This document shows positions 938 through 19,664 of a DNA stretch of 19,664 nucleotides, in pieces. Both the position numbers and the translations under genes were made by a program. The stretch's first letter is position 1. Each line of letters opens with the position of its first letter. The stretch is taken from contig JAMOMG010000013.1 of assembly GCA_027068695.1 (NCBI GenBank), forward strand, positions 1 to 19,664, in the 5' to 3' direction. Source of the DNA: Flavobacteriaceae bacterium. Lineage in GTDB: Bacteria > Bacteroidota > Bacteroidia > Flavobacteriales > Flavobacteriaceae. The notes beneath the pieces were generated by a model, which made no database searches, was not told the DNA's origin, and saw only the letters and a program-made list of their open reading frames with translations.

Positions 938-3245
938 TCGTTATAAATCCAATATTGATTCTTTTATTATTAAGCAAAAAATTATTCATAATACTAGTAA
1001 AAATATTACTACTATTCTAGGAGCTTGGGACGATATTGCTTGGGGTGTTTCTCCTAACCGCTTCAGGTTTTGTAAATTTGGAAGTAATAAACATTTGTCT
1101 GAGAGAAATATCCCAATCCAATCACATTTATCAGATAACTACATTTACTTTTGTAAAGCATATCTATCTTATATATTTATAGAGCATGGCTCTCAGTATC
1201 CTAGACTTGTAAAAGAAATATCAGCATTAAGGTGCATAGTAAAACTCCTAGAATATAAAAATTTAGAAATTTACCAAATTAATAGAGACTTAATAAACGA
1301 AGTTTTTACTTTAATCAACGACTTTTATATGAAAGGTTCTCAAGAAACGTTAGGGGCTTCCGTTTGTTACCTAATTAAATTTATGACTAGCAAAGAAATG
1401 CTGAATACGTCACTAAATATCACCAACCCTTTTAAATTTAATTCTAATTGTACAGAAGCTTTAATTAAGAATAAAGAAAAGCTTCCTAGTAAAAACGTAA
1501 TATTTGCTATTGCCGATATCTACTATAGAACTATGCCAAAGGATATAAATAAATGTTTAATTTTTGAAAATGTACTAGCAAGAATGGCTTGTTCAATAGC
1601 GTCAATTTTATTTGCCGCACCATCTAGAATTAGCGAATTAGCTTTACTATCAAGAAATAAAGAACCGAATAATAAATCATTTAAGTTTTTAAATGAAATT
1701 AAAGATATTAGTGGCACCTCTTATTCACTAGTATGGAGAGGATCGAAAAAAATGCTAGATAATGAAAAACACATTATTTCTTCCATGGCACCTATTGTAA
1801 ATGATTCATTAAACTATCTAAATAAAATCGGCGAACCTGCTAGGATTTTATGTAAATTTTATGAAGATCCACGCATAATTTTAAAAAATTTACTACCCAG
1901 AAATTATCAAAATAAATCATTAAATTTAAATACGCCAACTCGCTTATTTCAGCTTGGTGGCATTTTAGGTTTTTATTCGACGAGCGACCTAAAAAAAATT
2001 AATAGCTCTATAACACAAGGTCATTATAAGTCAAATAGTAGTGAAAATTTATTAACAACTAGATTTAAAGATTTATTCCCAGAATTCCCCTTAAATTATG
2101 ATGTCAATACGCCTGTATCAACGATTGTGAGAAACAGGTTGCTAGGCCTTCATAAGCAACACAAAATTAAATGGCCCAAAACATATATGACAATAGGTGA
2201 AATAGAAATATTTTGGTGTGCTTATCTAGTTTCCAAGATTGAAACCTTTCCCTATAGAATACGAGGCACCGACAATAAAAAAATATTGTTATCAAACGCA
2301 TTGATTATTTCATGTGGCAAACAAAAAGGAAAAAGGAAAAACTCTACCAAGGGGTTAAGTTCTCTATATGGTATTAATACAGGCGTCGATACAATATTCA
2401 GAACAGCATTCAAAATGGACTCTTCTAACAATTTATTTAAAAAATATGGTTATGATCTTTCAATATTTAGTTTAAATACTCACCAAATTAGGCACTATTT
2501 AGGAACGCAGGTAAGCAAAACAGATTTAACACAGGAAAATATTGCTAAATTATTCGGCAGAAAATCAACTGGACAGAATAAAGTTTATGATCATAGAACA
2601 GATGATGAAAAGCATGCTGAGATTGTATCTGTCTTCCCTAAGAAGAAGTTAAATATAAATCCAATTACTATTAAAGAATTTAAAGATTTGACAGATAAGG
2701 AATATGCTTCTAAAACTTCTACAGGTGTGTGCATACAGTCCCTTCATGTTAGTCCTTGTACATATTTGCAAGTTGGCAAGTCAGGCTGTACTGGTTGTTT
2801 TTCACATTGTTACATAAAAGGAGATGAAAAATCTTTGTCTTATCTTAAGGACGATTTGAAATTTCAAATGAGACGTATTCATGGTGATGAAATGGTGAAT
2901 AGAAACATAAATCAAATAATGAAAAAACAGTTTGACGTTCTCATTAACAATATTCGCTTTCTTCATTCACTTATTGAGATATTAGAAAATGATAAAATAG
3001 AAAATGGTGCAATAATTCGTTTCAGCCACAAAACCACATTTAAGGTTCTTAGTACAGATAAATCTGACTATGAAATTTCTGTAAATTTACAATTGCCTTC
3101 AGAAATAAAAAAAATGTTAGATGATAATAAAATTTCTGTTCCTACAGATGAAAAAAATGAAAATACTGATTTTAACAAGTTATTCAAATCTCTTAATACA
3201 ATGAAGAGCGAGAAAAAGCCACTTGAACTGAAGGTTCTAAAATGA
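930..3245 (+). CDS. Large tyrosine recombinase/integrase (TnpB/GmtZ-like)
   Basis: This 771-residue protein is a second tyrosine recombinase, expected to cut and rejoin DNA for integration and excision of the element. The catalytic set is present in order: Arg233 in APSRISEL, His518-x-x-Arg521 in THQIRHYLG, and a likely nucleophile Tyr553 in NKVYDHR. A Cys-rich segment follows (CIQS...SPC...GCTGCFSHC, about residues 600-635), ending in KGDEKSL. This C-x-n-PC...C-x2-C plus KGD pattern is typical of the large partner in Tn554-type and related two-integrase modules. The length fits that group (TnpB of Tn554 is about 630 residues) and far exceeds simple phage integrases. It begins 8 bp inside the previous gene and ends in an ATGA overlap with the next, so it is translationally coupled on both sides. 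With its partner truncated, this intact enzyme may not be enough for mobility. Confidence 0.8.
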   Translation: MINRYKSNIDSFIIKQKIIHNTSKNITTILGAWDDIAWGVSPNRFRFCKFGSNKHLSERNIPIQSHLSDNYIYFCKAYLSYIFIEHGSQYPRLVKEISALRCIVKLLEYKNLEIYQINRDLINEVFTLINDFYMKGSQETLGASVCYLIKFMTSKEMLNTSLNITNPFKFNSNCTEALIKNKEKLPSKNVIFAIADIYYRTMPKDINKCLIFENVLARMACSIASILFAAPSRISELALLSRNKEPNNKSFKFLNEIKDISGTSYSLVWRGSKKMLDNEKHIISSMAPIVNDSLNYLNKIGEPARILCKFYEDPRIILKNLLPRNYQNKSLNLNTPTRLFQLGGILGFYSTSDLKKINSSITQGHYKSNSSENLLTTRFKDLFPEFPLNYDVNTPVSTIVRNRLLGLHKQHKIKWPKTYMTIGEIEIFWCAYLVSKIETFPYRIRGTDNKKILLSNALIISCGKQKGKRKNSTKGLSSLYGINTGVDTIFRTAFKMDSSNNLFKKYGYDLSIFSLNTHQIRHYLGTQVSKTDLTQENIAKLFGRKSTGQNKVYDHRTDDEKHAEIVSVFPKKKLNINPITIKEFKDLTDKEYASKTSTGVCIQSLHVSPCTYLQVGKSGCTGCFSHCYIKGDEKSLSYLKDDLKFQMRRIHGDEMVNRNINQIMKKQFDVLINNIRFLHSLIEILENDKIENGAIIRFSHKTTFKVLSTDKSDYEISVNLQLPSEIKKMLDDNKISVPTDEKNENTDFNKLFKSLNTMKSEKKPLELKVLK

Positions 3246-3655
3246 AGAGAGTTGGGTCTGAGGGAATGTCAAACAAAGAGATCAGTAGTATTTGTGATTT
3301 AATTATTAATTGGGAAGGTAAATTAACTTGGCAATTATTAACCTCTAAAATTGAAATGAAATTATTGTTTAGGGTTTCTAGACAAACTTTATGTACATAC
3401 TTTGCAATAAAAAAAGAGTTTGATATAAGGAAAAAACAAACTCGTAATGGTAATCCAAGTAATAGAATAACCTTTCATAATTCTCCATCCGATATTAAAA
3501 AATTACAAAATACAATTGATAAGCAAAATAAAAAAATAGAGAGTCTTGAACGATCACTTAGAAAGCAAAGCCAACAGTTGCAGCTCTTTATTCTTAATGC
3601 AATGGATAATCCAAATGTAGATATGTCAACTCTCAACAAACCTAGAAAATATTAA
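3242..3655 (+). CDS. Small coiled-coil accessory protein of the recombinase module (TnpC/GmtX-like)
   Basis: A 137-residue basic protein. The N-terminal half (residues 25-65) holds a predicted helical DNA-binding-like segment around WQLLTSKIE and VSRQTLCTYFAIKKEF. Residues 80-120 form a strongly heptad-patterned coiled coil (KKLQNTIDKQNKKIESLERS). A short tail with DMSTLNKPRKY follows. This layout, a small helical protein with coiled coil directly behind two large tyrosine recombinases, matches the third protein of Tn554-like (TnpC) and gamma-mobile-trio modules. In Tn554, TnpC influences the efficiency and orientation of transposition; a similar role here is inference. The start ATG overlaps the TGA of the recombinase (ATGA), so translation is coupled. 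No catalytic motif is visible. Confidence 0.6.
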   Translation: MKRVGSEGMSNKEISSICDLIINWEGKLTWQLLTSKIEMKLLFRVSRQTLCTYFAIKKEFDIRKKQTRNGNPSNRITFHNSPSDIKKLQNTIDKQNKKIESLERSLRKQSQQLQLFILNAMDNPNVDMSTLNKPRKY

Positions 3656-3664
3656 TATAGTTTC

Positions 3665-4078
3665 ATGCTTAACGGACAACAAAAATCATTCCAAAACATC
3701 GAGTCTTTCATATCTTGGATGGCTTCAACTCAAGATGATTATTTCAAGCAGATTATCTACAGGGGAAAACTCAATCGGAATGAAGTGTCCAAGGGTTGTG
3801 GGTTTTCTAAAAGTGTCTTGTTGCAAAATCCTAAAGTTAAGGAGTTATTGAATGATCTGGAAGATTCCTTGAGAAAACGAGGTGTATTGCCAGATCTTAG
3901 TGATGTTGGTCAATCCAAGTTAATCAATACCAAATCTTATGACAAGAGCTATTCTAAAAATATAAAAGATTCCAAAAGGGTAGCTAATCTTGAGCAAAAA
4001 GTGATTGAGCTTGAAGCTAAATTAAAGCGTTATCAGGAATTGGCTGAAGTTATTACTGATATGGGCATCGATATCTAA
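3665..4078 (+). CDS. VPA1267-like small protein of the mobile module
   Basis: This 137-residue protein resembles the VPA1267 family known from Vibrio genomic islands. The opening MLNGQQKSFQNIESFISWM, the segment RGKLNRNEVSKGCGFSKSVL and the motif LRKRGVLP fit my recollection of that family; no alignment was run. Residues 40-65 read like a helix-turn-helix region (SKGCGFSKSVLLQNPKVKEL). The C-terminal 35 residues form a heptad-patterned coiled coil (VANLEQKVIELEAKLKRY). It starts 9 bp after the preceding gene and its TAA directly abuts the ATG of the helicase, so it belongs to the same operon. A DNA-binding or adaptor role in recombination is plausible, but I know of no biochemical function. 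Confidence 0.6.
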   Translation: MLNGQQKSFQNIESFISWMASTQDDYFKQIIYRGKLNRNEVSKGCGFSKSVLLQNPKVKELLNDLEDSLRKRGVLPDLSDVGQSKLINTKSYDKSYSKNIKDSKRVANLEQKVIELEAKLKRYQELAEVITDMGIDI

Positions 4079-6211
4079 ATGCCGTCCATTGTAAATATGC
4101 GTGTGACCAGTGTTTGGGAATCAACTCGCAAGTGGGTGTGTTTTAGTGGTGTACCAATTGAGGCTAATTCATCCAAAATCACCAGTGGGCGACATATTGT
4201 TATTGTTAAAACAACACCAGAAATCTTACCACTTGAGCCTACCAAGGGACAGCATTGGAAAATTACTGGTGATTTTGAAGAAAGGGAAACTGTTCATGGG
4301 GATTATAAATTAATAGAACAACATTGGTTGGAGCCAGAAAAATGTGAAGTTACATTACCGCATGATGGTGAAAACTTTATTCGGTTCATTGCTTATGAAA
4401 AAGCATTTTCAGGTATTGGAGAGGTTAAGGTCCGTGAGTTATGGTCAAAGTTTGGCAAGGAAACATTCAGCCTATTAGAAAACAAAGATACCAATAAATT
4501 AAAATCTGTATTAACTCCTAAAACAATCAAGAGCTTAATTGCTGGTTTTGAAAAATATGCCAATCTTAAATATTCTACTTGGTTTGCTGACCACAATATT
4601 CCCCCATACATACAACAACGCATATTCAAATACCACAAAGACAGCGCCGTTCAATCAATCAAGGATAATCCTTATAGTTTATTGAGCTTTGGCATGGACT
4701 TTATCAAAGCTGATAAATTAGCTCGAACAAAATTTTATATCTCCCTTGATGATTCTAGACGCTTAATTGCCGCAATAGAGGCCGCACTAAGGAATCATTC
4801 AAAGAATGGACATACATGTGCTGCATATTCCGATTTAAAGCCCTTAGTTGTTAAAATCTTAGGTTCTGAAGAATTGGCAACACTTGCTCTAAAGGAAGGT
4901 CATAATAAATTAGCATTTATACTCAATCCAAAAACTGGTATCTACCACAATACTCCCTTGTTTATTATGGAAAAGGTTGTAGCCAAACGTATCAATAATT
5001 TGTTAACTGATACGAACCCATTAAATCAACAATTTGTAAAAGCTTATCAAAAAGAACTATCAAGAAGCCCTTTTCAATTAACATCAAAACAAAACCAAGC
5101 TGTACAGACTGCATTAGAGAACAAAGTACCCTGTATAACTGGCGGTGCAGGAACAGGCAAAACGACAGTTCTAAGAACCATACTAAAAATATATTATGAT
5201 TGTGGTTATCAAATTTACCCACTGGCATTAGCAGGAAAGGCAGCCATGCGATTGCGAGAAAGTATTGGTTTCACCACTCAAACCATTGCCAAATTTTTAA
5301 TGGAAGAACCGATTGAAAAAGAATCGAAAACCATCATAGTCATTGATGAAGCCAGTATGCTTGATTTGCCAACGATTTATCGTTTGGTTATAAAAACGCA
5401 TCCATCAGTCAGGTTTTTATTTGTTGGTGATCCAAATCAATTACCACCAATTGGAGCTGGTATTGTACTTGCTGATTTGATTAAATCTAAAAAAGTAGCC
5501 AATGTAGAACTTGATATAGTTCAAAGACAAGAAGCATCTACGGGCATTCCAGAATACTCCAAACTAATTAAAGATGGAATTGTTCCACCAAGTCTTGCCT
5601 ATAAGAACATTAGGTTCCATGAGACCAATGATATCTCAATGGCACAACAATGTACCTCGTTATATATACAAGAACCCAAGGACTGCATAATCCTTGCACC
5701 CACAAAAAAGTTAACAAAAGAAATAAACCAATTGTGCCAACAACAAACCAATCAAGAATCCCCAAATCTAAAATTCATTGAGCATGGAGAACACTACACC
5801 ACCGAATTTAAACTCAATGACCCTGTGTTATTCACACAAAACAATTATGATGCTGGTGTTCAAAATGGTAGTTTGGGTAGGTTAATTTCTATTGAGCAAA
5901 ACGAAAAACTATTAGGTATAGTAAAATTGGATGGTTCAAACAAGGAAATCAAAATCAACAAAGTTCTATTGGACTCTCTAGAATTAGGCTATTGTATAAC
6001 ATTACACAAAGCCCAAGGCTCTCAATTCAAACGAGTCATCATTGCCATCAACTTATCACGAATGATTGACAGGGCTTGGATATACACAGCAATTACACGC
6101 AGTGAAGTTGAGCTTCATTTGGTTGGTCAAAAACAGATTGTTGAAAAATCTATTAAAAGAGTCAGTTCTCAATATTTGAGGAAAACTTATTTGTCAGAAT
6201 TGATTATTTAA
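4079..6211 (+). CDS. RecD2-like SF1 DNA helicase
   Basis: A 710-residue SF1 helicase of the RecD/RecD2 type, expected to unwind DNA 5' to 3' using ATP. The N-terminal half carries a helix-hairpin-helix-like stretch (SGIGEVKVRELWSKFG, about residues 118-133), as in RecD2. The motor follows: Walker A GGAGTGKTT (355-363), Walker B VIDEAS with Asp423-Glu424, motif III GDPNQLPPIG, motif V TLHKAQGSQF near residue 645, and motif VI YTAITRS near 667. The length is close to bacterial RecD2 (700-850). Its ATG abuts the stop of the VPA1267-like gene, making it the last gene of the recombinase operon. This suggests a role in processing DNA during transposition or in replicating or repairing the element, although an anti-phage role is possible. 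The region after the stop has no clear terminator. Confidence 0.8.
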   Translation: MPSIVNMRVTSVWESTRKWVCFSGVPIEANSSKITSGRHIVIVKTTPEILPLEPTKGQHWKITGDFEERETVHGDYKLIEQHWLEPEKCEVTLPHDGENFIRFIAYEKAFSGIGEVKVRELWSKFGKETFSLLENKDTNKLKSVLTPKTIKSLIAGFEKYANLKYSTWFADHNIPPYIQQRIFKYHKDSAVQSIKDNPYSLLSFGMDFIKADKLARTKFYISLDDSRRLIAAIEAALRNHSKNGHTCAAYSDLKPLVVKILGSEELATLALKEGHNKLAFILNPKTGIYHNTPLFIMEKVVAKRINNLLTDTNPLNQQFVKAYQKELSRSPFQLTSKQNQAVQTALENKVPCITGGAGTGKTTVLRTILKIYYDCGYQIYPLALAGKAAMRLRESIGFTTQTIAKFLMEEPIEKESKTIIVIDEASMLDLPTIYRLVIKTHPSVRFLFVGDPNQLPPIGAGIVLADLIKSKKVANVELDIVQRQEASTGIPEYSKLIKDGIVPPSLAYKNIRFHETNDISMAQQCTSLYIQEPKDCIILAPTKKLTKEINQLCQQQTNQESPNLKFIEHGEHYTTEFKLNDPVLFTQNNYDAGVQNGSLGRLISIEQNEKLLGIVKLDGSNKEIKINKVLLDSLELGYCITLHKAQGSQFKRVIIAINLSRMIDRAWIYTAITRSEVELHLVGQKQIVEKSIKRVSSQYLRKTYLSELII

Positions 6212-6292: not shown

Positions 6293-6320
6293 TTGACAAA
6301 TAAATAAAAGAGCGTATATT
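6293..6320 (+). promoter_or_regulatory. Sigma70-type promoter of the OLD-UvrD-RT operon
   Basis: A perfect -35 TTGACA (6293-6298) is followed after 16 bp by TATATT (6315-6320), five of six matches to the -10 consensus. Transcription would start near 6327, about 33 nt before the ATG of the OLD nuclease gene. It lies in the only gap of more than 100 bp between the mobility operon and the cargo, as expected if the cargo has its own promoter. The ribosome binding site before 6360 is weak (GAG at 6350-6352). Confidence 0.6.
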
Positions 6321-6359: not shown

Positions 6360-8417
6360 ATGTACATATCAAAAATACAAATAAGTAATTTTAGAAACTT
6401 CAAAAATAAGGAAGTTATATTCAATGATGGAATAAATGTAATTATTGGTCATAATAATTCTGGTAAAACAAATTTAATTAAAGCTCTTTCCTTGGTAATT
6501 GACAATAACAGATCTAAACGTTTAGATATTGATGACTTTAACAAAAATATAACTTTAGAGGAGCTTAAAAAAAGCCCTCCTAAAATCAGTATTTCTATTT
6601 CAATTACAAAAGGAAAAGAAGAAACACAAGATGATTTGGTTACAATTTCGAATTGGCTAACTAAATTAGATAGTTCATACGAAGCATTGTTAACTTATGA
6701 GTTTTTTTTACCCGAAAATAAACATGAGGTGTATATTAATGCCTTATCTTTTATCACAGATGATACCCCCAATAATTTAGAGCAGGCATGGAAGTTAGTT
6801 AATCAAGATTTTATTCGATTTTATGTGTATAAGATTTGGGGAGGGAAAATTACCAACCAAGCAATTGCTGATTCAGAATCATTACAAAAATTTGATTTTC
6901 AATTTCTAGATGCAATAAGAGATGTTGAAAGAGACATGCTTACTGGTCGGAACACTCTTTTAAGAGAGGTTTTTGATTTCTTTATGGATTATGACATCAA
7001 AATAAATAAAGAAAAAACATCTAAGCAAAAAAGTATTGAGATAAAAGCTAGACAAGAAATGTTTTCAACAAAAGCAGATATTCTAATAGAAGATTTAGAT
7101 GCAAGAATTAAATCAGGAAAACAAGAAATTCTTTCTTATGCTGAAAGAACTGGTGCATCATTTAATAAGGCAAAACCTAATTTTGAAGGAAGTTTTTCAG
7201 AAAATGATATGTATTCAGTTTTAAAACTTATTGTAAAAGATGAGTCTGGTATCAAAATACCTGCAACACATAATGGTTTAGGTTATAACAATTTAATATT
7301 CATGTCTTTGTTACTTGCAAAAATGCAAGTGAATGCGGATGCTGATTATTTAGATACCAATGCTAAAGTGTTTACAACCTTAGCAATTGAAGAACCTGAA
7401 GCACATCTTCACCCATCTATGCAATATAAGTTTCTTAAATTTTTAAATGAAAATAAAAAAGATAAAAAAGTTCGTCAAATATTTGTGACGACTCATTCAA
7501 CCCATATTACTTCAGCAGTTTCTTTAGATGAACTCATTTGTTTACATAATGAAAATGGAGAGACTATTGTAGGATATCCAAGCAAGGTGTTTCCAGATGA
7601 TAAAAATAAAAAATACGTCCAACGATTTTTAGATGCGACAAAATCTGACATGCTTTTTGCACAGAATATTTTGTTTGTTGAAGGTCTCGCCGAACAATTA
7701 TTAATGTCTATTTTTGCTAAATACATGGGCAAATCACTCGAAGATAATCATGTGGCTATTATAAATGTTGGTGGTCGTTATTTTGAGCATTTTCTATATT
7801 TGTTTGATAGCGAAAAAGAAAATACAATTCATAAAAAAGTTGTATGCCTTACTGATAGAGATCCTGAAAGAAAAGAGAAGACTGAAGAAAACTTCAAAAA
7901 ATGTTATCCCTTTGAATATAATTTAGATACAAATTCTTTCGATTATCAAATAAACCCAAATGCTGATAAATATTGTAAAGGTAAGCATAAAAACATTACA
8001 TTATTCAGCCCAGAAGTGAAAAAAGGAAAAACTTTAGAGTACGAATTACTCATGAGCAATCCTTCTTCAAGGTTACTTCTTACAGATTCTATTAGTAATA
8101 AAGAAGAGTTAGAAGAGTTAATGTCCATATTTGAAACTGATGGTTCAACTGTCAAGGACTTGATGGATAAATTAAGAAGTAGTAAAGAAAATGACAGAAT
8201 CATAGATTCAATAAACTCAAATACAGAACTAGACCCTGAAGAAAAGAAAAAATCCATAATTGCATCAAGGTATTTGAATTCAGTAGGTAAAGGAGAGAAT
8301 GCTCTTGAATTATCTTATATTCTATCTCAAAACTTAGAGAAAAAAGATACTGATGAGTTTGTAGAGTTTAATATCCCTCAATATATTAAAGATGCAATAG
8401 AAGAGCTATGTCAATAA
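6360..8417 (+). CDS. OLD-family ATPase/TOPRIM nuclease (GajA-like)
   Basis: This 685-residue protein is an OLD-family nuclease: an ABC/SMC-like ATPase fused to a TOPRIM nuclease. The ATPase shows Walker A GHNNSGKT (30-37), Walker B IEEPEAHLHP with Glu344-Glu345, and the H-loop VTTHSTH (376-382). The TOPRIM domain shows LFVEGLAEQ with metal-binding Glu441 and Glu445, then LTDRDPE with Asp499 and Asp501, then the conserved KTLEYEL. The nuclease residues therefore look intact. In Gabija, GajA (about 580 residues) cuts DNA when phage activity depletes nucleotides; this protein is about 100 residues longer. Its last 10 bp overlap the UvrD-like gene, the class 2 OLD arrangement that defines Gabija. 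It differs from the standard two-gene system in being followed directly by a reverse transcriptase gene. Function is inferred from family. Confidence 0.88.
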   Translation: MYISKIQISNFRNFKNKEVIFNDGINVIIGHNNSGKTNLIKALSLVIDNNRSKRLDIDDFNKNITLEELKKSPPKISISISITKGKEETQDDLVTISNWLTKLDSSYEALLTYEFFLPENKHEVYINALSFITDDTPNNLEQAWKLVNQDFIRFYVYKIWGGKITNQAIADSESLQKFDFQFLDAIRDVERDMLTGRNTLLREVFDFFMDYDIKINKEKTSKQKSIEIKARQEMFSTKADILIEDLDARIKSGKQEILSYAERTGASFNKAKPNFEGSFSENDMYSVLKLIVKDESGIKIPATHNGLGYNNLIFMSLLLAKMQVNADADYLDTNAKVFTTLAIEEPEAHLHPSMQYKFLKFLNENKKDKKVRQIFVTTHSTHITSAVSLDELICLHNENGETIVGYPSKVFPDDKNKKYVQRFLDATKSDMLFAQNILFVEGLAEQLLMSIFAKYMGKSLEDNHVAIINVGGRYFEHFLYLFDSEKENTIHKKVVCLTDRDPERKEKTEENFKKCYPFEYNLDTNSFDYQINPNADKYCKGKHKNITLFSPEVKKGKTLEYELLMSNPSSRLLLTDSISNKEELEELMSIFETDGSTVKDLMDKLRSSKENDRIIDSINSNTELDPEEKKKSIIASRYLNSVGKGENALELSYILSQNLEKKDTDEFVEFNIPQYIKDAIEELCQ

Positions 8418-10108
8418 TATCTATAAACTCTGATTATGAATTAACTAACATTGACCATAATTTCAAAATCTCAGCTGGCCCTGGAGCAGGTAAAACGTAT
8501 TGGTTGGTGAACCATATTAAAAACATTTTACATAATTCGAATAAGTTATCGATAACTAGAAAAATTGCTTGTATTACTTATACAAACACAGCTGTTGAAA
8601 CAATTTATAAACGTTTAGGGACGTCATCTACCCAAGTAGAAGTATCTACAATTCATAGTTTTCTATACAAACACATTGTAAAGCCTTATGCTTCATTTAT
8701 TGCTGATCAATATAATTTAGACATTAGTAAGATGGATGGCCATGACGATATTATACTATCAAATTATAGTTTTTTAAATGAATGGAAAAAGAAAACTAAA
8801 CAACAAAGAATACGTGAAGATGATGTGGTTATAAGAGCTTTTAAAGAATTAAGATGGCAAATAAGTAATGGAGATTTAGTGGTTAAAACTCCATACCCAT
8901 TTATGGTTGAAAAATATGCGATAAAAAATGATTCATATTTTGAATACAAAAAAATGGCTTGGGAGAAAGGGGTAATTCATCATGATGATGTTTTATTTTT
9001 TAGTTATCAAATTCTTAAACAATACCCTTATGTAACAACTGTTTTATTAGCAAAATTCCCATTCCTAGTTATAGATGAATTTCAAGATTGTAACCCTATT
9101 CAAATCGAAATATTTAAATCTTTAGGTTTAGTAGGCATAATAACAGGGGTAATAGGCGATCCTTACCAATCAATATACAAATTCCAAGGAGCAGATTATA
9201 CTCAGTTTGATTTTTTTAATTTGCCTCAAATTCAAGAATATCGTTTAAATGAAAACAGAAGAAGTAGTAACGAAATAGTTGACCTACTTAATCATATTAG
9301 AACTGATATTATCCAAATTCCTTATAGAAATATTTCAATTGACAAACCGAAAATTTTAATTGGTGACATGGCGTTAGCATTGAAAATGTGTAAAGCCCTT
9401 TGTAATCAAGAAATGGTTAACTCACTTTCTAGAATTAATATTACTTCAAATGCAATGAAAGCTGAAATTAGTGGGACTAATTTAGATAGTAAACTACTAG
9501 AGAAATTAGTGTCCACAGATAAGCCTAGTTCTGCGAATAAATATCGTAGTAAATTAATTATGTCTTGTGTTAAATCTATTGCTTATGCAAAAGAAGATAA
9601 ATTTAAAGATGCTATAAAAGAATTAGAAAGATTCTTTAATTATAAAATTGATAAAATAAGGGGTAAACGTAAAGCATTAAAATACATAACTATATTATTG
9701 AATGAATATGATAAATATAAAGATAGTTCACTAATAGAATTTTCGGAATTCGTAAGATTGAACTTAGATTCAAATATTACAAAAGTTAGCAGGGGTGGTG
9801 TAAAAGTGTTTTATGAAAGTTATACTTTTAGTCAACTACTCCTCTGTGTCTCAATACCTGAAGATTTGAGTTTGCATAAAACGATACATAAGTCAAAAGG
9901 TGATCAGTTTAAAAATGTGTTGTTAGTCCTAAAGGAGGAAAACGATATTGATTTTTTACTTAAGCCTGATTTAGAAAGAAATGAAGAACATAGAATATAT
10001 TATGTAGCACTGAGCAGAGCTAGAAATAATCTTTTTATTTCAGTACCGTCACTACATAAAAATAAATATAAATTACTTGAGAAGCATTTTAAGATGGAGA
10101 TTTTTTGA
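8408..10108 (+). CDS. UvrD/PcrA-like SF1A helicase (GajB-like)
   Basis: A 566-residue SF1A helicase of the UvrD/Rep kind. The motifs are Walker A AGPGAGKT (23-30), motif Ia CITYTNTAVE, Walker B VIDEFQD (Asp223-Glu224), motif III GDPYQSIYKFQGAD, motif IV LNENRRSSNEI, motif V HKSKGDQF (Gln500) and motif VI YVALSRAR with the arginine finger at about Arg537. It is shorter than UvrD (about 720 residues) and close to GajB (about 490), which lacks some accessory domains. Starting 10 bp inside the OLD gene, it is the expected Gabija partner. In that system GajB is thought to sense DNA ends or nucleotide loss and to work with GajA. Its TGA touches the ATG of the reverse transcriptase gene, with a good GGAG ribosome site at 10096-10099 inside its 3' end. 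The middle of the protein (residues 300-480) is Lys-rich and poorly conserved. Confidence 0.85.
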   Translation: MSIISINSDYELTNIDHNFKISAGPGAGKTYWLVNHIKNILHNSNKLSITRKIACITYTNTAVETIYKRLGTSSTQVEVSTIHSFLYKHIVKPYASFIADQYNLDISKMDGHDDIILSNYSFLNEWKKKTKQQRIREDDVVIRAFKELRWQISNGDLVVKTPYPFMVEKYAIKNDSYFEYKKMAWEKGVIHHDDVLFFSYQILKQYPYVTTVLLAKFPFLVIDEFQDCNPIQIEIFKSLGLVGIITGVIGDPYQSIYKFQGADYTQFDFFNLPQIQEYRLNENRRSSNEIVDLLNHIRTDIIQIPYRNISIDKPKILIGDMALALKMCKALCNQEMVNSLSRINITSNAMKAEISGTNLDSKLLEKLVSTDKPSSANKYRSKLIMSCVKSIAYAKEDKFKDAIKELERFFNYKIDKIRGKRKALKYITILLNEYDKYKDSSLIEFSEFVRLNLDSNITKVSRGGVKVFYESYTFSQLLLCVSIPEDLSLHKTIHKSKGDQFKNVLLVLKEENDIDFLLKPDLERNEEHRIYYVALSRARNNLFISVPSLHKNKYKLLEKHFKMEIF

Positions 10109-13100
10109 ATGGGACTATTAGATAAAAAATACATTGAGCTAAAGCCTACTGATGAATACTTAACTGATAAAGTGATTTTAGCTCAAGCATGGAAAAAATC
10201 GCAAAATTTTATTCGTTCAACAAATTGGTATGCGAATACGTTTGAACTAGAGCAGTCAATTTTAGCTTTGTCAAGCAATCTTGATAATTGGCAGATTGAA
10301 CTTGAAAGTCATGATTATGTTTTGACTCCATTAAGATTAATTCCTGCTCCTAAGTCAACAAAATGGGAATTTGTTAATATATCACTTTTTCCTCCAGTTG
10401 ATAAAAATGGAATGAATTGGCAATGTTTAGAGGAGGCTTCAGCTAATTTAAATCAAAGTTGGCAGCCTGTGGAAGAACAAGTTGTCGATAACAAAACAAA
10501 TACGCCTGTACTTCAAAGGCAGGTACCTGCATTAAGACCCCTGGCACATGTTCCAATAAAAGAGCAAACATACTTTACTGCTTTAATGATGTGTTTAGCA
10601 AATCAAGTGGAAACCATTCAAGGTGATACATCTACTCATTTAGAACAGGTTCATGAAAAAAACATTGTTAATTATGGCAACCGACTATTCTGTCGGTTTA
10701 TGGAAGATGATGCTAAATTTCCATGGGGAAATAGCACTATTTACAGTAAATACTTTACTGATTATCAAAAGTTCTTGGCACGATCTAATCATTTTGCTAA
10801 ACAAGCTATTCAGCAGAAATCAAATAAAGAGCAAGTATTTGAAGTTCAATTAGATTTAAATCGTTTCTATGATTGTATAAATCGACTAAAATTGAATGAA
10901 AAAATAGTTGAACTTATAAAAGGTAATGATGAAGCAGAACTTTGTGGTATTAAAACTCTTCTTAACAAATTTGAAAACTGGGAATGGGATGATGAATCCA
11001 AATCACTGTATAAAAAAGTATGTCAAAAAGATAGTGAAAAAGCTCCTTTAGGAATACCTCAGGGGTTAGTGGCTGGAGGCTTTTTAGCTAATATATACTT
11101 GCTTGATTTTGATACTAAAATATCTTTTTTAATTAATAACTGTATAAAAGAAAAGCATCTAATAGTAGATTATTCTCGTTATGTTGATGACATGCGTTTG
11201 GTTATTGTTACTGAATCACAAAAACTAGAATTAAAGCAAGACATTGTTGAGTATTTCAACGCAATTTTAAATGAAATTGGTTTATCGTTAAATGATGATA
11301 AAACTAAAGTTGAACTCTTCCAAACTAAAAAAACAGGTATATCTCTCAAGCTTAAATCAATTCAAGGAAAAGTTAGTGGTCCAATTTCCAATCAAGAAAT
11401 TGACGAACAGCTAGGGCATTTAGAGGGGTTAATCAATCTAGCAGATTACATACGTACTATACCTAAAAATGAAATAGGCAATAACCCATTGTCACTTATT
11501 GAAGCACCTAATCATGATGTCCGTGAAGACACATTAATTAGATTTGCAGCCAATAAAATACATAATTTATTAAACCAAAAAAGAAATTTTTATACTCAGG
11601 AATTAGATGAGAATGGAAATTTCGAATCTGGTAGTTGGGACTATTTACAAGAGCGAATGGCTCGCAAGTTTATTGGGTGCTGGACAAAGGATCCATCTCT
11701 AGTCTTGCTCTTAAAAAAAGGCATTGAACTATTTCCAGATACATATATTTTAAAGTCAATTATTTCACAATTTAAATTTGTAATTAATCGTGATGATCTA
11801 AAACAAAGATACTTAATTGAATATTGTTTATGTGAAATTTTTAGACATAGTGCTACGGTTATTCAAAATAAACCTATCAAGGCTTTTCCTTCTCATTCAA
11901 ATAAAGAAGAGTATTTTGAATATTTACAATGTTTAGCAATTGAGATATTGGAAGCCGATAAAAAATATTCTTTAAATGTTAGGGAGCAAGCCAGATTTTT
12001 ACTTTTGGTTAGAAATGATTCTTTGTTGTCATATGAGGATAAAGAAGACGATAACTTCAATATAGTTATGAAATTTATGAAAGGATACCGTTCGATTGCT
12101 AACGATATGTCACATCAGGCTTTCATTTTTAATGCTCTTATTGCATATCAATTTGCGCAATCTCCAAAAGCTGTAATAAGATCTATTTCTAGTTTTTTTG
12201 AAAAAATCAGTAAAAAGAAAGTTAGTAAAAAAAATAGTATTTCGTTAAACAGGGATAATTTGTCAGACTTGTTAAATAATTTGGCTATAGAATCAGATTT
12301 TTTGATTGCTGAGTTGTTGAGCTATGCAAATAAGAACGACTTAAAATGGCATAAAGAGCATACTATTGCTATCAATAAATTAGGTTTAAATCAAAAGCGA
12401 GTTAAAGTCGATGTTAAGCTTAGTAAGAACTATTACTCTCTTTTAGGCGTAATTAAACATAGCGAGAATCCATTTTCACATGAGAATGCAGTGCTTGGAT
12501 TACTTAAAGAATGTTTAAAAAATCATGATTTCGAAAAAGCTATAGATTTAGCAAACTCCAAGATTAATTGTTCTAATTGGGGTGCTATTCAAAGCTTGTC
12601 CCAGGAAATTAATATTAAAATAGAACCTGATGCTAAACCATTATTTGGAGTGCCTGATTGGGTACTTAAAGAGCATAAACCTCTATACCATATTGGTATG
12701 TTTATTCGATCGTGTTTGACTGGTTCAATTGATTGGTCAAATTCATTGGGCAAAGGACAAAGGAAAGTCCCTGGTATTAAATCAGGCTTTGTTAAACGTC
12801 AGTTTGGCATAATGCATTCACCGGAATCTATAATTGGAGAGCATGCACCAATGAGTAGCTGGTTATCTAATCTTTTGTTTCATCTTTTACAATGGCCTGG
12901 TTTACAGCTTTATAATTTTGAAGTGAGTTTGCCTAAGATATGGAGCTTAAAATCCCTTATTCAATTAGTTGACCAACGCATTGATTTCCAAAAAAGCATG
13001 TATTGTCGATTATCAAATATCCCGGGATATGTGGAGAAAGTTAACTTAAAATGGGATAAAGATAAACGTGATCTAGATGTAATATTGGTTCAATCTTTGT

Positions 13101-13921
13101 TACCACAAAAAAAAGACTTTACAGAACATGGTTTAATGTTGAATACGCCAGAATATAAGGTGAAACATAGAAGGCACATCGCTTCTGTTGCAGAATTAAT
13201 TCTCCACAAAAAATACAGTCATGAAACCTTACTTTCTGAAAGAAAGGGTAAAATAGATCTTATTATTTTTCCTGAGCTAGCTGTTAACTCTGATGATATA
13301 GATATATTGAAACGTCTTTCTGATAAGACCGGTGCCATAATATTTGCTGGCCTAAATTTTACTCAAGTACATAACATTGATGGTCCAAACAATGTTGCAA
13401 AATGGATTATTCCAAATAAAAAAACAAGTGGAAGGACTTTCATTGAGCGTTTACAAGGCAAGCATCATATGATGAAAGATGAGAAATCTCATATTAAACC
13501 ATGGAGACCATATCAGTTATTTATTGAGTTAATGCATCCAAACTTTGAAAAAGAACAGGGCTTTCGCTTAACTGGTTCAATATGTTTTGATTCTACTGAT
13601 ATAAATATGAGTGCAGATTTGAAAGGAAAATCGAACGCCTACTTAATTCCATCTTTAAATATGGATGTAAATACATTTGATTCAATGGTGGATGCTCTAT
13701 ATTATCACATGTATCAGCATGTGATTCTAGTAAACACTGGTGAGTTCGGTGGTTCAGTAGCAAAAGCACCATATAAAAAGAGGCATGAAAAGTTAATTAC
13801 TCATGTACATGGAGCGCAACAAGTATCAATATCTAGTTTTAAAATGAATATGTTTGATTTCAGAGATATAAGTTTATCGTATTGTAGTGGTAAAGAAATA
13901 AAAACAAAACCAGCAGGTTAA
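10109..13921 (+). CDS. Reverse transcriptase-nitrilase fusion (UG1 / DRT type 1-like)
   Basis: A 1270-residue defence-associated reverse transcriptase. The polymerase occupies about residues 140-440: a fingers region with ALRPLAHVPIKEQTYF, motif A QLDLNRFYDCI (Asp249), motif B PLGIPQG (317-319) and the catalytic YVDD (358-361), then thumb-like DKTKVELF. The C-terminus (about 1025-1255) is a carbon-nitrogen hydrolase (nitrilase) fold with a plausible triad: Glu1056 in FPELAV, Lys1118 in GKHHMMKDE and Cys1159 in GSICFDST. The 500 residues between are mainly helical and match nothing I recognise. An RT fused to a C-terminal nitrilase is the hallmark of unknown-group 1 RTs, reported as DRT type 1 anti-phage systems. 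The start is fixed by the TGAATG junction with the helicase gene. Its substrate and product are unknown; the intact YVDD and nitrilase Cys suggest both enzymes are active. It is a UG/Abi-type RT rather than a retron or group II intron RT. Confidence 0.88.
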   Translation: MGLLDKKYIELKPTDEYLTDKVILAQAWKKSQNFIRSTNWYANTFELEQSILALSSNLDNWQIELESHDYVLTPLRLIPAPKSTKWEFVNISLFPPVDKNGMNWQCLEEASANLNQSWQPVEEQVVDNKTNTPVLQRQVPALRPLAHVPIKEQTYFTALMMCLANQVETIQGDTSTHLEQVHEKNIVNYGNRLFCRFMEDDAKFPWGNSTIYSKYFTDYQKFLARSNHFAKQAIQQKSNKEQVFEVQLDLNRFYDCINRLKLNEKIVELIKGNDEAELCGIKTLLNKFENWEWDDESKSLYKKVCQKDSEKAPLGIPQGLVAGGFLANIYLLDFDTKISFLINNCIKEKHLIVDYSRYVDDMRLVIVTESQKLELKQDIVEYFNAILNEIGLSLNDDKTKVELFQTKKTGISLKLKSIQGKVSGPISNQEIDEQLGHLEGLINLADYIRTIPKNEIGNNPLSLIEAPNHDVREDTLIRFAANKIHNLLNQKRNFYTQELDENGNFESGSWDYLQERMARKFIGCWTKDPSLVLLLKKGIELFPDTYILKSIISQFKFVINRDDLKQRYLIEYCLCEIFRHSATVIQNKPIKAFPSHSNKEEYFEYLQCLAIEILEADKKYSLNVREQARFLLLVRNDSLLSYEDKEDDNFNIVMKFMKGYRSIANDMSHQAFIFNALIAYQFAQSPKAVIRSISSFFEKISKKKVSKKNSISLNRDNLSDLLNNLAIESDFLIAELLSYANKNDLKWHKEHTIAINKLGLNQKRVKVDVKLSKNYYSLLGVIKHSENPFSHENAVLGLLKECLKNHDFEKAIDLANSKINCSNWGAIQSLSQEINIKIEPDAKPLFGVPDWVLKEHKPLYHIGMFIRSCLTGSIDWSNSLGKGQRKVPGIKSGFVKRQFGIMHSPESIIGEHAPMSSWLSNLLFHLLQWPGLQLYNFEVSLPKIWSLKSLIQLVDQRIDFQKSMYCRLSNIPGYVEKVNLKWDKDKRDLDVILVQSLLPQKKDFTEHGLMLNTPEYKVKHRRHIASVAELILHKKYSHETLLSERKGKIDLIIFPELAVNSDDIDILKRLSDKTGAIIFAGLNFTQVHNIDGPNNVAKWIIPNKKTSGRTFIERLQGKHHMMKDEKSHIKPWRPYQLFIELMHPNFEKEQGFRLTGSICFDSTDINMSADLKGKSNAYLIPSLNMDVNTFDSMVDALYYHMYQHVILVNTGEFGGSVAKAPYKKRHEKLITHVHGAQQVSISSFKMNMFDFRDISLSYCSGKEIKTKPAG

Positions 13922-14115: not shown

Positions 14116-14195
14116 AGAAAATCAAATATGTTACGATGGCATTAAGGCTCCTACTAATAATTATTAACGACACAATTCAACGTTGTGAACATCCT

Positions 14196-17100
14196 ATGAC
14201 TAGAATAAAAAATATTACAAAATACTTCCGACAGTCCATTATTGATTCTGAAAGATTAAGCCCTGCTGATAAAGACTTATTACCAATTCTTGGTATACAA
14301 AAAGAGGTTCAAAAATCTACAGATTATGAGAATATACCTATTGAGTCTTGGCTTACTGGAAGGGTTGACCCATCGCTGGCAAAAAAAATAGTACAAAGTA
14401 AACAGATAAAAAACAAGCCTCCTTTGAGGGAAGTGGAGATTGTCATCTTTCCACGAGTAGATTTATTAAAAAGTGATGGTGGTGCTATAACTCAATCTAA
14501 ACGTAGAGTGTTATTACCTTTAGTTGTTTTTGTAAATTTAACAATTGATGGTGAGTTAAAGCCATCTAAGAAGGCACCATGGATACCTCGTGAATGGCTA
14601 TCTCCAAATAACAGAAATAGAGATGGAATTGGGGAATTTTCAAATGTAGATAAATATATCACGCATAACCCTTTTGAAAATGTAGACACATGGGAACAAT
14701 TAATTAAGTATAGTACTTCTTTATTAAGTATGGTTACAGGAAAACCATGTACCAATCAACCTGATTCTGAAGAAGAGCTTATATCTATATATGATTTAAA
14801 GCTACATTCAGATTTTGAATTAAGTCAATTCTGTTTGTTACAAATAACACCACCAATTGTTGGTGCTAAAGCTAAAATTCTTAAGGTTTTAGATCTATTA
14901 ATTGGAAAAGATACATTTCCAAGACTTTATCAAAGCTATTGTAGTGAGATTTCTCCAAAACTTGTTTCATATAAAAATATGGAAAACAATATTAATATAG
15001 CAAAAAATCATATTGCACAAATGACTGGTGAATTTCCGCTTTCCCCAAATCAAAGGAATTCTTTACATCACTTCATAGCACAAAAAAATGGAGAAATTCT
15101 TACTATCAATGGACCGCCTGGCACAGGGAAGACCACCTTGTTGCTCTCAGTGGTTGCCAACCTATGGACACAAGCTGCACTTGATGAAGCCGAAGCTCCA
15201 TTGATAGTAGCAACATCAAACAATAATCAGGCAGTAACAAATATTCTTGAAAGCTTTGCAAAAATTGATGAAGATGGTTTAGACTCGAAATTAAAAGGAA
15301 GATGGATTCCTGAAGTTGATAGCTATGGTCTTTATTGTTGTGCCGGAAGTAAAGCTAATGATAAAAATAACTACATGTATAACGGCCCAAAAGATGAAGG
15401 CCGTATGAAAAAATTTCAAACTCAAGAATATGTTGATTCAGCGAGTTCAGAATTTTTAAAAAAAGCAACTTCTTGGCACCATAGCCCTGTTGAATCCATT
15501 AAGGACGCTAAAGAAAGTCTGTTAAAATCATTGAAGTCTACAAAAAAAGAAATTGCGAAAGGAATTGATAAACTATTAATGTTTTTAGATAAGCATGATT
15601 ACATAGTATCAAAATATGGAAACATAGAATCACTTAATAAATCACATGTTCATATAGAATGCACTGTTGAGTCAACAAAAAAGGATCTAGCATTAGTTAA
15701 ATCACAATTAAAAGAATTCTATTTATTGTGGGAAAATAGGAGTTTATTAATTCAATTACTAATGTGGATACCTCCAATAAGAAAACAAGAATATCATAAG
15801 AATAGACGTTTGATGCTTGATTGGGATGTTGATTGTATTCAATTTGATGATGACTATATTGAAGTATTATTCCTTAAAAAGATTGAACAACTTAAAAGCA
15901 ATATTTCTGACAATGAAAATAAGTTAAGAGTTACTCTTAAACTTCTTAATGAATACCAAAAAGCAGAGTTCGCATTAATTACCTGGATTGAAAAGCATCA
16001 ACCTTCAAATTTAAATTCAAGTTCTTTCATTGATGCCGTTAATGAAATCAATGACCGGGTGTTACGATTTAAAATGTTTAAAATTGCAACTCACTATTGG
16101 GAAGCACGTTGGTTAATTGAAATAAAGGAATTTTTAGATGCAAATGATTCTGATAAGAAATCAGTAATAAAAGTAAAAAGAAAACTAAGAAGATTCTCAA
16201 AGATTACACCATGCTTTGTTTCAACATTTTATATGGTTCCATCTACATTCTTGGCGGGAAGCTATACAGATAATGTGTGGAAAGACATTCCATTGTTTAA
16301 TGAAATTGATCTTCTTATTGTTGATGAAGCTGGCCAAGCACTTCCTGAAGTATCATCTGCAAGTTTTTCATTAGCTAAACGCGCACTAATAGTTGGTGAT
16401 ACCGATCAAATTGAGCCTGTTTGGTCAATACCAGCTAGTATTGATCGATTAAATCTTCAATTGTTTCAGTTAATGAATAGTGAAGAAGAATACCAAAAAT
16501 GGTTAGATAGTGGTTTACTTGCAAGTAGCGGGAATGTAATGAAAGTATCACAAAGGCAATGCCTCTACCATCAGTTTGAAGAGCTACAAAGAGGTTTATA
16601 TCTAACGGAACATAGAAGGTGTTTTGATGAAATTATCGAATACTGCAATAAATTAGTATACAAAGGTATTTTAGATTCTAAGAGAGGGAGCCCTAAATCT
16701 GAAGTTCCTTGGGGTACTATGTCAATGGTTCCTGTTTATGGCCCATCAAAATCATATGGTGGTAGCAGGGGTAATGAAAATGAAGCCACTGAAATTGCTA
16801 GTTGGTTACTACAAGAAAAGAATGTAATTCTAGATTATGCAAAGGAAAATAACCCTAAATGGGTTAATAAAACAGATGAAGAAATTTTCAGCCTTTCAGT
16901 TGGTGTAATAACTCCTTTCAAAAAACAAGCTAATCTAATTCACAATGAACTTAGAAAACAAAACATTCAAAAGATAACTGTTGGTACGGTTCATAGCCTT
17001 CAGGGTGATGAAAGGCTAATTGTGCTATTTTCTAGCGTTTATGGGGAGAATGATAAAGACAGTGGTAAATTCTATGATTTTTCACACAACATGCTTAATG

Positions 17101-17216
17101 TTGCTGTATCACGAGCGAAAGATTCTTTTATAGTATTCGGGCATCCCGATATCTTCGGAATGGCAAATAAAGGGAATCCTTCTGGCATGTTGAGGTTGAG
17201 TTTATCAACCCTTTAA
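14196..17216 (+). CDS. UPF1/DNA2-like SF1 helicase
   Basis: A large SF1B helicase of the UPF1/DNA2/SMUBP type. From the ATG at 14196 (1006 residues) the motor motifs are Walker A NGPPGTGKTT (305-314), Walker B IVDEAGQALPE (Asp710-Glu711), motif III GDTDQIEP, motif IV EHRRCFDEI, motif V GTVHSLQGDE (Gln936) and motif VI NVAVSRAK (Arg973). About 250 residues (400-680) with coiled-coil-like stretches sit between motifs Ia and II. Residues 1-280 have no recognised domain, and no C-terminal nuclease is seen. An upstream ATG at 14136 adds 20 residues with no ribosome site. I prefer 14196 because MTRIKNITKYFRQSIID reads as a natural N-terminus, but that site too lacks a clear ribosome binding site. 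Similar helicases occur in several defence systems. Same strand as the RT operon but 274 bp away, so it is either a fourth component or an independent cargo gene. Confidence 0.8.
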   Translation: MTRIKNITKYFRQSIIDSERLSPADKDLLPILGIQKEVQKSTDYENIPIESWLTGRVDPSLAKKIVQSKQIKNKPPLREVEIVIFPRVDLLKSDGGAITQSKRRVLLPLVVFVNLTIDGELKPSKKAPWIPREWLSPNNRNRDGIGEFSNVDKYITHNPFENVDTWEQLIKYSTSLLSMVTGKPCTNQPDSEEELISIYDLKLHSDFELSQFCLLQITPPIVGAKAKILKVLDLLIGKDTFPRLYQSYCSEISPKLVSYKNMENNINIAKNHIAQMTGEFPLSPNQRNSLHHFIAQKNGEILTINGPPGTGKTTLLLSVVANLWTQAALDEAEAPLIVATSNNNQAVTNILESFAKIDEDGLDSKLKGRWIPEVDSYGLYCCAGSKANDKNNYMYNGPKDEGRMKKFQTQEYVDSASSEFLKKATSWHHSPVESIKDAKESLLKSLKSTKKEIAKGIDKLLMFLDKHDYIVSKYGNIESLNKSHVHIECTVESTKKDLALVKSQLKEFYLLWENRSLLIQLLMWIPPIRKQEYHKNRRLMLDWDVDCIQFDDDYIEVLFLKKIEQLKSNISDNENKLRVTLKLLNEYQKAEFALITWIEKHQPSNLNSSSFIDAVNEINDRVLRFKMFKIATHYWEARWLIEIKEFLDANDSDKKSVIKVKRKLRRFSKITPCFVSTFYMVPSTFLAGSYTDNVWKDIPLFNEIDLLIVDEAGQALPEVSSASFSLAKRALIVGDTDQIEPVWSIPASIDRLNLQLFQLMNSEEEYQKWLDSGLLASSGNVMKVSQRQCLYHQFEELQRGLYLTEHRRCFDEIIEYCNKLVYKGILDSKRGSPKSEVPWGTMSMVPVYGPSKSYGGSRGNENEATEIASWLLQEKNVILDYAKENNPKWVNKTDEEIFSLSVGVITPFKKQANLIHNELRKQNIQKITVGTVHSLQGDERLIVLFSSVYGENDKDSGKFYDFSHNMLNVAVSRAKDSFIVFGHPDIFGMANKGNPSGMLRLSLSTL

Positions 17217-19491: not shown

Positions 19492-19541
19492 ACAATTATA
19501 CCTCTGACTTCCCAACTCTTTACTGCAAAGAATAACATAAT

Positions 19542-19664
19542 TGTTACCAACAATGCAAAAATGAGCCACATCAACAGTTGAAAAGTGAGCCAGTTATATA
19601 ACAATGGTACTTTTTAATTAAAGTGCCTATGATTACAACTGAAGAACTCATGAAAATAAAGATA
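19542..19664 (+). mobile_element. IS21-like element, left end
   Basis: The DNA from about 19542 begins TGTTACC and carries two copies of a GAGCCA repeat, AAATGAGCCA (19559-19568) and AAGTGAGCCA (19583-19592). IS21-family ends typically have such multiple internal repeats for transposase binding. An IstA-like reading frame starts 37 bp later. The outer boundary is inferred; the element runs off the window. Confidence 0.5.
19629..19664 (+). CDS. IS21-type transposase IstA, N-terminal fragment
   Basis: An ATG at 19629 encodes MITTEELMKIKI and stays open to the window end. This resembles the start of IstA proteins (MI-x-x-E-x-x-x-x-I), which continue into a helix-turn-helix. Only 12 codons are seen, but the flanking GAGCCA repeats support the call. 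No catalytic residue is inside the window. Confidence 0.45.
   Translation, partial: MITTEELMKIKI

What the first reader, a model, noticed from the sequence alone, without database searches (positions are those of the whole stretch)
6360..13921. OLD nuclease, UvrD helicase and RT-nitrilase encoded in one coupled operon
Seen: the OLD and UvrD genes overlap by 10 bp, and the UvrD and RT genes abut as TGAATG, behind one good promoter. Known: OLD plus UvrD is the Gabija arrangement (GajA/GajB), and RT-nitrilase fusions are DRT type 1, each described as defence systems in their own right. Inference: translational coupling suggests fixed stoichiometry and a single composite system, in which the RT might make a DNA that the nuclease/helicase pair senses or cuts, or the nitrilase might alter the nucleotide pools that GajA senses. 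I cannot say whether this three-gene arrangement has already been described.
Basis: partly seen in the sequence, partly recalled or inferred. Interest (0 to 1): 0.82.

Follow-up and report, generated by a model that had tools for sequence, protein, structure and literature searches.

The report
Gabija operon with DRT1 tail gene
A two-gene bacterial anti-phage nuclease system (Gabija) has a separate, probably self-sufficient anti-phage reverse transcriptase gene (DRT1) joined directly to its end; many relatives of that gene are joined in a similar way to other defence operons, so it looks like a movable second line of defence rather than a part of one new machine.

Summary
In detail: gajA (6360-8417), gajB (8408-10108, 10-bp overlap) and an RT-nitrilase gene (10109-13921) that starts on the base after the gajB stop, behind one good promoter. 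PADLOC scores are 995, 730 and 1366 bits. A dedicated three-gene system is not supported: 0 of 73 other DRT1 loci with at least 600 bp upstream have Gabija there, and 0 of 8 related gajAB loci have a DRT1. The two halves have different nearest kin. The RT's clade instead tends to follow type I restriction-modification genes: 15 of 32 loci directly, 2 at wider gaps; 7 of 14 junctions read are TAAGGA-N5-7-ATG. Four loci keep the RT behind a mere remnant. The window's RT nests in this clade, so its upstream operon was probably exchanged. A published relative defends alone. Best reading: DRT1 is an autonomous abortive back-up that docks on the 3' end of other defence operons, here Gabija in a GInt-like island. 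New variant of known defence-operon embedding.

The parts
6293..6320 (+). sigma-70-type promoter TTGACA-N16-TATATT, 11 of 12 matches, probable promoter of gajA-gajB-drt1
6360..8417 (+). gajA: OLD-family ATPase + Toprim nuclease; PADLOC GajA PDLC00069, 995 bits; E441 aligns with catalytic E379 of B. cereus GajA
8408..10108 (+). gajB: UvrD-like SF1 helicase; PADLOC GajB PDLC00119, 730 bits; overlaps gajA by 10 bp
10096..10099 (+). GGAG Shine-Dalgarno-like motif inside the gajB 3' end, 9 nt before the RT start
10109..13921 (+). drt1 (UG1 RT-nitrilase), PADLOC Drt1a PDLC03745, 1366 bits; YVDD D360/D361 = D324/D325 and C1159 = C1116 of the solved DRT1 (9YFD)
14136..17216 (+). Mokosh type II (MkoC)-like helicase, 214 bp downstream, perhaps a separate transcription unit (PADLOC MkoC PDLC03924, 942 bits)
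104..4078 (+). GInt-like integration module: two integrase-like genes (weak family matches, both below NCBIfam cut-offs; the first apparently cut by the contig end), a small protein, and a VPA1267-family protein (148 bits, cut-off 90)
4079..6211 (+). RecD2-like helicase (393 bits, below the cut-off of 500) of the same mobile module; same order in a Photobacterium plasmid, L140

Best explanation
Two complete anti-phage systems share one transcription unit. Gabija (gajA-gajB) is a first-line DNA-cutting system. DRT1 is a self-contained abortive system: by analogy with the solved relative it primes short DNA on its own serine, forms dormant filaments, and frees its nitrilase when phage replication proteins appear. 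The drt1 gene is placed so that gajB translation runs into its start, so it takes its promoter and its ribosomes from the operon in front. This is a tendency of its clade, which often docks in the same way on the 3' end of type I restriction-modification operons; here the host operon was exchanged for Gabija inside the cargo of a GInt-like island. Shown: gene order, junction, families, catalytic residues, nested phylogeny, partner variety, scars. Inferred: co-expression, translational coupling, independent action, layered first-line/back-up benefit.
For: Family scores for all three proteins. Gabija absent upstream of the RT in 73 of 73 other DRT1 loci with at least 600 bp upstream. Type I RM gene or scar directly upstream in 15 of 32 clade loci, 2 more at wider gaps (families). 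The window RT is sister to L001 (GHKL-type ATPase upstream, support 0.999) and then L031 (HsdS, support 1.0). TAAGGA-N5-7-ATG (stop and Shine-Dalgarno overlapping) at 7 of 14 junctions read, scar L009 included. In-frame hsdR-hsdS scars in L009 and L026 keep the RT at 10 and 3 bp after the restriction enzyme is gone. Named nearest relatives of GajA and GajB are Bacteroidota, those of the RT Gammaproteobacteria. DRT1 alone protects E. coli MG1655 (PMC13275509); GajA and GajB together protect and in PA14 are non-abortive (PMC12407980).
Against: Only one Gabija-DRT1 locus is known here, so its stability is unknown. 13 of 32 clade loci have no tight same-strand neighbour, so docking is a tendency, not a rule. 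Outside the clade only 2 of 41 loci have HsdS directly upstream (L077, L116) and 2 a IIG-type methylase; one tight neighbour there is a housekeeping gene (L067, ketol-acid reductoisomerase). G+C content does not clearly separate the parts (gajA 29.0%, gajB 28.2%, drt1 31.7%). The PA14 paper says that its non-abortive result contradicts earlier data that Gabija is abortive, which blurs the first-line/back-up split. The DRT1 authors say that drt1b may be essential where present. Coupling and co-expression are inferred from sequence; a link specific to Gabija is not excluded.
Confidence: 0.68

Rival explanations
1. True composite system: DRT1 makes DNA adducts or its nitrilase changes nucleotide pools that GajA senses, so the three proteins act as one machine with fixed stoichiometry.
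For: Zero-spacer junction and shared promoter. B. cereus GajA is described as suppressed under normal conditions and activated by depletion of NTP and dNTP (PMC8136825, passage); the DRT1 nitrilase substrate is unknown and ATP, GTP or NAD are discussed (PMC13275509, section 10). An OLD nuclease working with an RT exists in retron-Eco8 (PMC12887533, passages).
Against: No other such locus among 73 DRT1 loci or 8 gajAB loci; different nearest kin of the two parts; the RT clade uses other partners and even bare scars; the studied DRT1 works without a partner; no retron RNA family match.
Confidence: 0.1
2. Neutral juxtaposition: a deletion or recombination in a defence island happened to bring drt1 against gajB, and the coupling has no selective meaning.
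For: Single example; defence islands shuffle; a MkoC-like gene lies next door. 13 of 32 clade loci have no tight neighbour.
Against: Tight 3'-end docking recurs across the clade, with a shared stop/SD/start junction at 7 of 14 junctions read, and two scars keep it in frame, which suggests it is maintained for expression. The window drt1 has a good SD within gajB.
Confidence: 0.2
3. A retron-like system with a missed non-coding RNA: OLD nuclease, helicase and RT kept silent by an RT-made DNA.
For: Retron-Eco8 pairs an OLD protein with an RT.
Against: RT is Drt1a, 1366 bits; GajA matches the Gabija type and scores 47.7 bits against a cut-off of 250 for the Eco8 effector model; no Rfam match at gathering scores; no spacer between the genes for an msr-msd.
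Confidence: 0.02

Closest known systems
Gabija (GajA/GajB)
   Same: Two-gene operon, GajA and GajB families at 995 and 730 bits, short overlap, conserved Toprim glutamate
   Different: A third gene is joined to the gajB stop codon with no spacer; not seen in 8 related gajAB loci
DRT1 (UG1 RT-nitrilase, PDB 9YFD)
   Same: Same two-domain protein, RT aspartates and nitrilase cysteine conserved
   Different: Placed in a Gabija operon; no small gene follows within 200 bp, where about 18% of drt1 genes are reported to have drt1b
Defence genes embedded in type I RM operons (DarTG2, PMC12255303; TgvAB, PMC11411939; passages read)
   Same: One defence system sits inside the operon of another
   Different: There the host operon is type I RM and the guest lies within it; here the guest is DRT1 at the 3' end and the host is Gabija; in its clade the commonest host is type I RM
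Retron-Eco8 (OLD + RT + ncRNA, PMC12887533; passages read)
   Same: OLD nuclease and RT in one operon
   Different: Class 3 OLD, retron RT and msDNA; none of these was found here
GInt genomic islands (PMC5385486; passages read)
   Same: Integrase-like genes, small gene, then variable cargo directly after them
   Different: Contig starts inside the integrase genes, so the full set and the ends cannot be seen

Membership tests
Gabija | GajA-family OLD protein with ATPase and Toprim domains | tested here: met
   PADLOC PDLC00069 995 bits, residues 1-685 of 685; AAA_15 and OLD-like_TOPRIM
Gabija | Toprim catalytic residues | tested here: inconclusive
   E441 aligns with E379 of B. cereus GajA; D499/D501 align with a DxD there; counterparts of D511 and K541 could not be aligned; the structure model was too poor
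Gabija | GajB UvrD-like helicase encoded next to gajA | tested here: met
   PADLOC PDLC00119 730 bits; genes overlap by 10 bp
Gabija | GajA-GajB ring complex that blocks phage | not testable with these tools
   needs protein and phage work
DRT1 | UG1 RT fused to C-terminal nitrilase | tested here: met
   PADLOC Drt1a 1366 bits over residues 8-1270; 9YFD E 9.8e-149
DRT1 | RT and nitrilase catalytic residues (D324/D325, C1116 of 9YFD) | tested here: met
   D360/D361 and C1159 align
DRT1 | priming serine S402 | tested here: inconclusive
   S402 falls in an insertion of the profile alignment, two residues after the one aligned with S423; S423 is invariant in 25 aligned homologues and is the likely counterpart
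[quoted passage not shown]
   published for a relative (PMC13275509), needs bench work here
Single Gabija-DRT1 composite system | conserved three-gene order in relatives | tested here: not met
   0 of 73 DRT1 loci with at least 600 bp upstream, 0 of 8 gajAB loci, contig-length join of the best 120 each shares only the window
Retron (Eco8 type) | msr-msd non-coding RNA and retron RT with class 3 OLD | tested here: not met
   no Rfam match at gathering scores; RT is Drt1a; Eco8 effector model far below cut-off
GInt island | ginABCD operon followed by cargo, flanked by direct repeats | tested here: inconclusive
   integrase-like genes, small gene, VPA1267 and RecD2 in the same order as Photobacterium L140; left end missing, repeats not tested

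The most novel reading that the evidence does not exclude
DRT1 of this clade is a plug-in terminal module: it docks by translational coupling on first-line DNA-cutting operons (type I RM, and here Gabija) and acts as a dead-man switch, its dormant filaments being tuned by co-synthesis with the upstream enzyme and released when phages overcome that enzyme. Here this would mean that a phage able to inhibit or evade GajAB triggers the RT-nitrilase.
Probability: 0.15. Interest if true: 0.75.

Novelty: new variant of a known kind. Interest (0 to 1): 0.45.

Why it matters
It replaces the idea of a new three-part machine with a rule that can be tested: one defence gene repeatedly docks on the tail of other defence operons, keeps the coupling even where those operons are reduced to scars, and can change host operon. 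That bears on how multi-layer bacterial immunity is assembled and regulated, and on whether an abortive system is wired to the failure of a first-line nuclease. It also warns that tight gene overlap in defence islands is not by itself evidence of a joint mechanism.

Tried and rejected
Viral contigs: the RT alignment found 2 loci; GajA and GajB single-sequence scans found none; the GajA alignment found 1 locus, L120, without a DRT1. Phage records: 1 partial RT match; no GajB at E<=1e-60. Near-identical DNA of the window in plasmids: none.

GajA in 369 genomes of the class of G001 at E<=1e-100: none (the tool warns that an empty answer without a positive genome shows nothing). GajA family PDLC00069 at E<=1e-120 in 395 genomes of the phylum of G375: 3; in 395 genomes of the order of G389: 3, one shared. 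So close gajAB is rare in these samples, and 8 loci are a small base for saying that DRT1 does not follow it. In 6 genomes that hold a DRT1 locus the best GajA-family match is 167 bits, far from the window's 995.

AlphaFold2 of GajA from 13 sequences gave mean pLDDT 52, too low to use; no fold search was run.

Literature: the UG/Abi survey of 2022 (recalled; doi 10.1093/nar/gkac467) was not held, so whether it already notes hsdS next to UG1 RTs could not be checked. Searches for Gabija with DRT1 or RT, and for hsdS with RT/nitrilase/DRT1, showed no paper that describes either arrangement: 1 paper, passages read; 2 papers; passages of one read, the other seen in the listing only; none; 1, passages read; 42 papers, 20 listed, judged by title and start of abstract. 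Open-licence papers only.

How the counts were made: 82 distinct loci besides the window. Left out before: five of the 82 loci whose RT is short or has no closed ORF in the locus (L024, L028, L034, L039, L078) and eleven duplicates (L094-L096, L103-L108, L117, L118). 9 of the 82 have under 600 bp upstream, leaving 73. 'Tight' means a same-strand ORF of 60 aa or more within 60 nt. Upstream classes were given by hand; L017 was put under HsdS on tblastn, since the ORF caller had chosen an opposite-strand ORF; the tight 63-aa ORF of L093 is probably spurious (the record's upstream gene is qatD, 284 bp away). Of 10 plasmid RT hits 3 were fetched.
Full report
Observation. The intergenic stretch before the first gene holds the best promoter-like site of the region, 11 of 12 matches; simulated sequence of the same length and composition gives such a site in 0.5-0.6% of trials. 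Between the RT gene and the next gene there are 214 bp, so the likely operon is gajA-gajB-drt1. A GGAG stands 9 nt before the RT start, inside gajB. No non-coding RNA family (gathering scores) or tRNA matches.

Identity. The first two proteins match PADLOC GajA (995 bits) and GajB (730 bits) over nearly their whole length, and the third matches Drt1a (1366 bits); the next gene downstream matches MkoC of Mokosh type II (942 bits). E441 of GajA aligns with E379 of the B. cereus enzyme, which is needed for its nuclease activity (PMC8136825, passages); two other needed residues, D511 and K541, could not be placed. The RT has a solved relative, PDB 9YFD (E 9.8e-149). Its RT aspartates D324/D325 and nitrilase cysteine C1116, both needed for defence (PMC13275509, section 5), are D360/D361 and C1159 here. 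The priming serine S402 falls in a loop that aligns with a small shift; S423, invariant in 25 homologues, is the likely counterpart. The proteins look intact.

Is it one system? I collected 80 loci from genome contigs and 2 from viral contigs, plus three plasmid loci and two from further genomes. After five short or unclosed RT loci and eleven duplicates were dropped there were 82 distinct loci besides the window, 73 of them with at least 600 bp upstream. None carries GajA or GajB upstream of the RT by tblastn or HMM; one weak helicase match lies about 4 kb downstream in L052. In eight related gajAB loci none has an RT downstream; seven have 2.7 kb or more to look at, L115 has only 246 bp. Among the best 120 RT and best 120 GajA proteins (of 775 and 4095 hits), the only shared longest-contig length is the window's own; GajA and GajB share 53 of 119, which shows that the join works. 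The named nearest relatives of GajA are Bacteroidota at 80-81% (Aureibaculum, Labilibaculum, Psychroserpens, Dokdonia; recalled to be marine), with a Psychrobacter at 74%; the named nearest of GajB are Bacteroidota too. Those of the RT are Gammaproteobacteria at 63-68%. The two halves have different nearest kin, although their G+C contents are close.

What the RT often follows. In the RT's clade the gene directly in front is often the last gene of a type I restriction-modification operon. Of 32 clade loci with at least 600 bp upstream, 9 have HsdS within 60 nt, 2 HsdR within 60 nt, 4 only a remnant of such a gene or operon, and 2 an HsdS or HsdR at 178 or 448 bp; 2 have another tight neighbour (one of them, L093, probably a spurious ORF) and 13 none. 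Over all 73 loci the numbers are 11, 2, 4, 2, then 2 type-IIG-like methylases (L044, L056), 13 other tight and 39 none. Two further genomes added one HsdR case (L132, 43 bp) and one negative (L133). Of 14 junctions read, 7 (L002, L003, L031, L011, L017, L042 and scar L009) have TAAGGA-N5-7-ATG, stop codon and Shine-Dalgarno overlapping; L001, L004, L013, L014, L026, L027 and L080 do not. In L009 the first 36 residues of HsdR are joined in frame to the last 37 of HsdS, and in L026 residues 6-71 of HsdR to the last 48 of HsdS, both followed by the RT at 10 and 3 bp. In L014 an HsdS tail, and in L043 an HsdR C-terminal piece of 214 aa, stands directly in front; what lies further upstream of those two was not worked out. 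So the RT and its place can outlive the enzyme in front.

Exchange of the host operon. On the RT tree (79 sequences, FastTree, midpoint root) the window is sister to L001 (GHKL-type ATPase upstream; support 0.999). The next branch is L031 (HsdS; 1.0), then L002 and L003 (HsdS) and L036 (PD-Lambda-2 component, 226 bp; 0.893), then L004 (HsdS; 0.975). A change from restriction operon to Gabija on the window's branch is the simplest reading. GajB ends at its native length, but its last residues (KMEIF) differ from the usual DIEN[IVL], and this is where the GGAG lies; that the tail was reshaped to serve the RT is a guess.

Mechanism. The studied DRT1 gives protection by itself in E. coli MG1655, by abortive infection, with dormant DNA-adduct filaments, and T4 escapes it by mutating the helicase Dda; a drt1b neighbour is reported in about 18% of cases and may be essential there (PMC13275509, abstract, sections 5, 7, 9, 10 and passages). 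Gabija defends without any RT and in P. aeruginosa PA14 does so without killing the cell, against earlier reports of abortive action (PMC12407980, abstract and section 5). The most likely working is thus layered: Gabija acts first on phage DNA, DRT1 acts later as suicide back-up, and both are made from one message.

Setting. To the left lie two integrase-like genes, a small gene, a VPA1267-family gene and a RecD2-like helicase. The same order, RecD2 included, stands in a Photobacterium plasmid. This resembles GInt islands, whose cargo begins at the end of the integrase operon (PMC5385486, passages). The contig is cut at its left end, so this assignment is open.

Known or new. Embedding of one defence system in the operon of another is established, for example DarTG2 in a type I RM operon (PMC12255303, passages) and TgvAB (PMC11411939, passages). 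I found no description of DRT1 at the tail of Gabija or of type I RM operons in the searches listed, but the main UG/Abi survey was not held. The bold reading leans on PrrC, which I recall, without a call, to sit in a type I RM operon and to fire when the enzyme is inhibited; a passage in PMC12255303 says that Gabija itself is activated by the T7 anti-restriction protein Ocr, so cross-talk between anti-restriction and such layers is not far-fetched. Verdict: known parts in an unusual, informative arrangement; a new variant of a known kind.

Noticed in passing
L002, L003, L031, L011, L009, L017, L042 (just upstream of the RT start): Shared junction TAAGGA-N5-7-ATG in which the hsdS stop overlaps the Shine-Dalgarno of drt1; 7 of 14 junctions read.
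   Followed up: yes
L009:9748-9990, L026:9668-9997, L014:9802-10014, L043:9295-9939: Remnants of type I RM genes directly before the RT; in L009 and L026 the start of hsdR is joined in frame to the end of hsdS.
   Followed up: partly
L005, L006, L011, L035, L093, L098, downstream of the RT: A gene of 149-168 aa overlaps the RT stop by 4 bp in these Gammaproteobacteria; possibly drt1b, missing in the window.
   Followed up: no
L044:307-3333, L056:6234-9989: Type-IIG/PglX-like methyltransferases end 2 bp before or overlap by 4 bp the RT gene in distant DRT1 loci.
   Followed up: partly
window 10084-10108: The gajB tail (KMEIF) departs from the usual DIEN[IVL] of its relatives exactly where the RT ribosome-binding motif lies.
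   Followed up: no
window 104-6211; L140: GInt-like mobile module with VPA1267 protein and a RecD2-like helicase, same order in a Photobacterium toruni plasmid.
   Followed up: partly
window 18592-19569: 325-aa minus-strand ORF with no Pfam or PADLOC match; function unknown.
   Followed up: no
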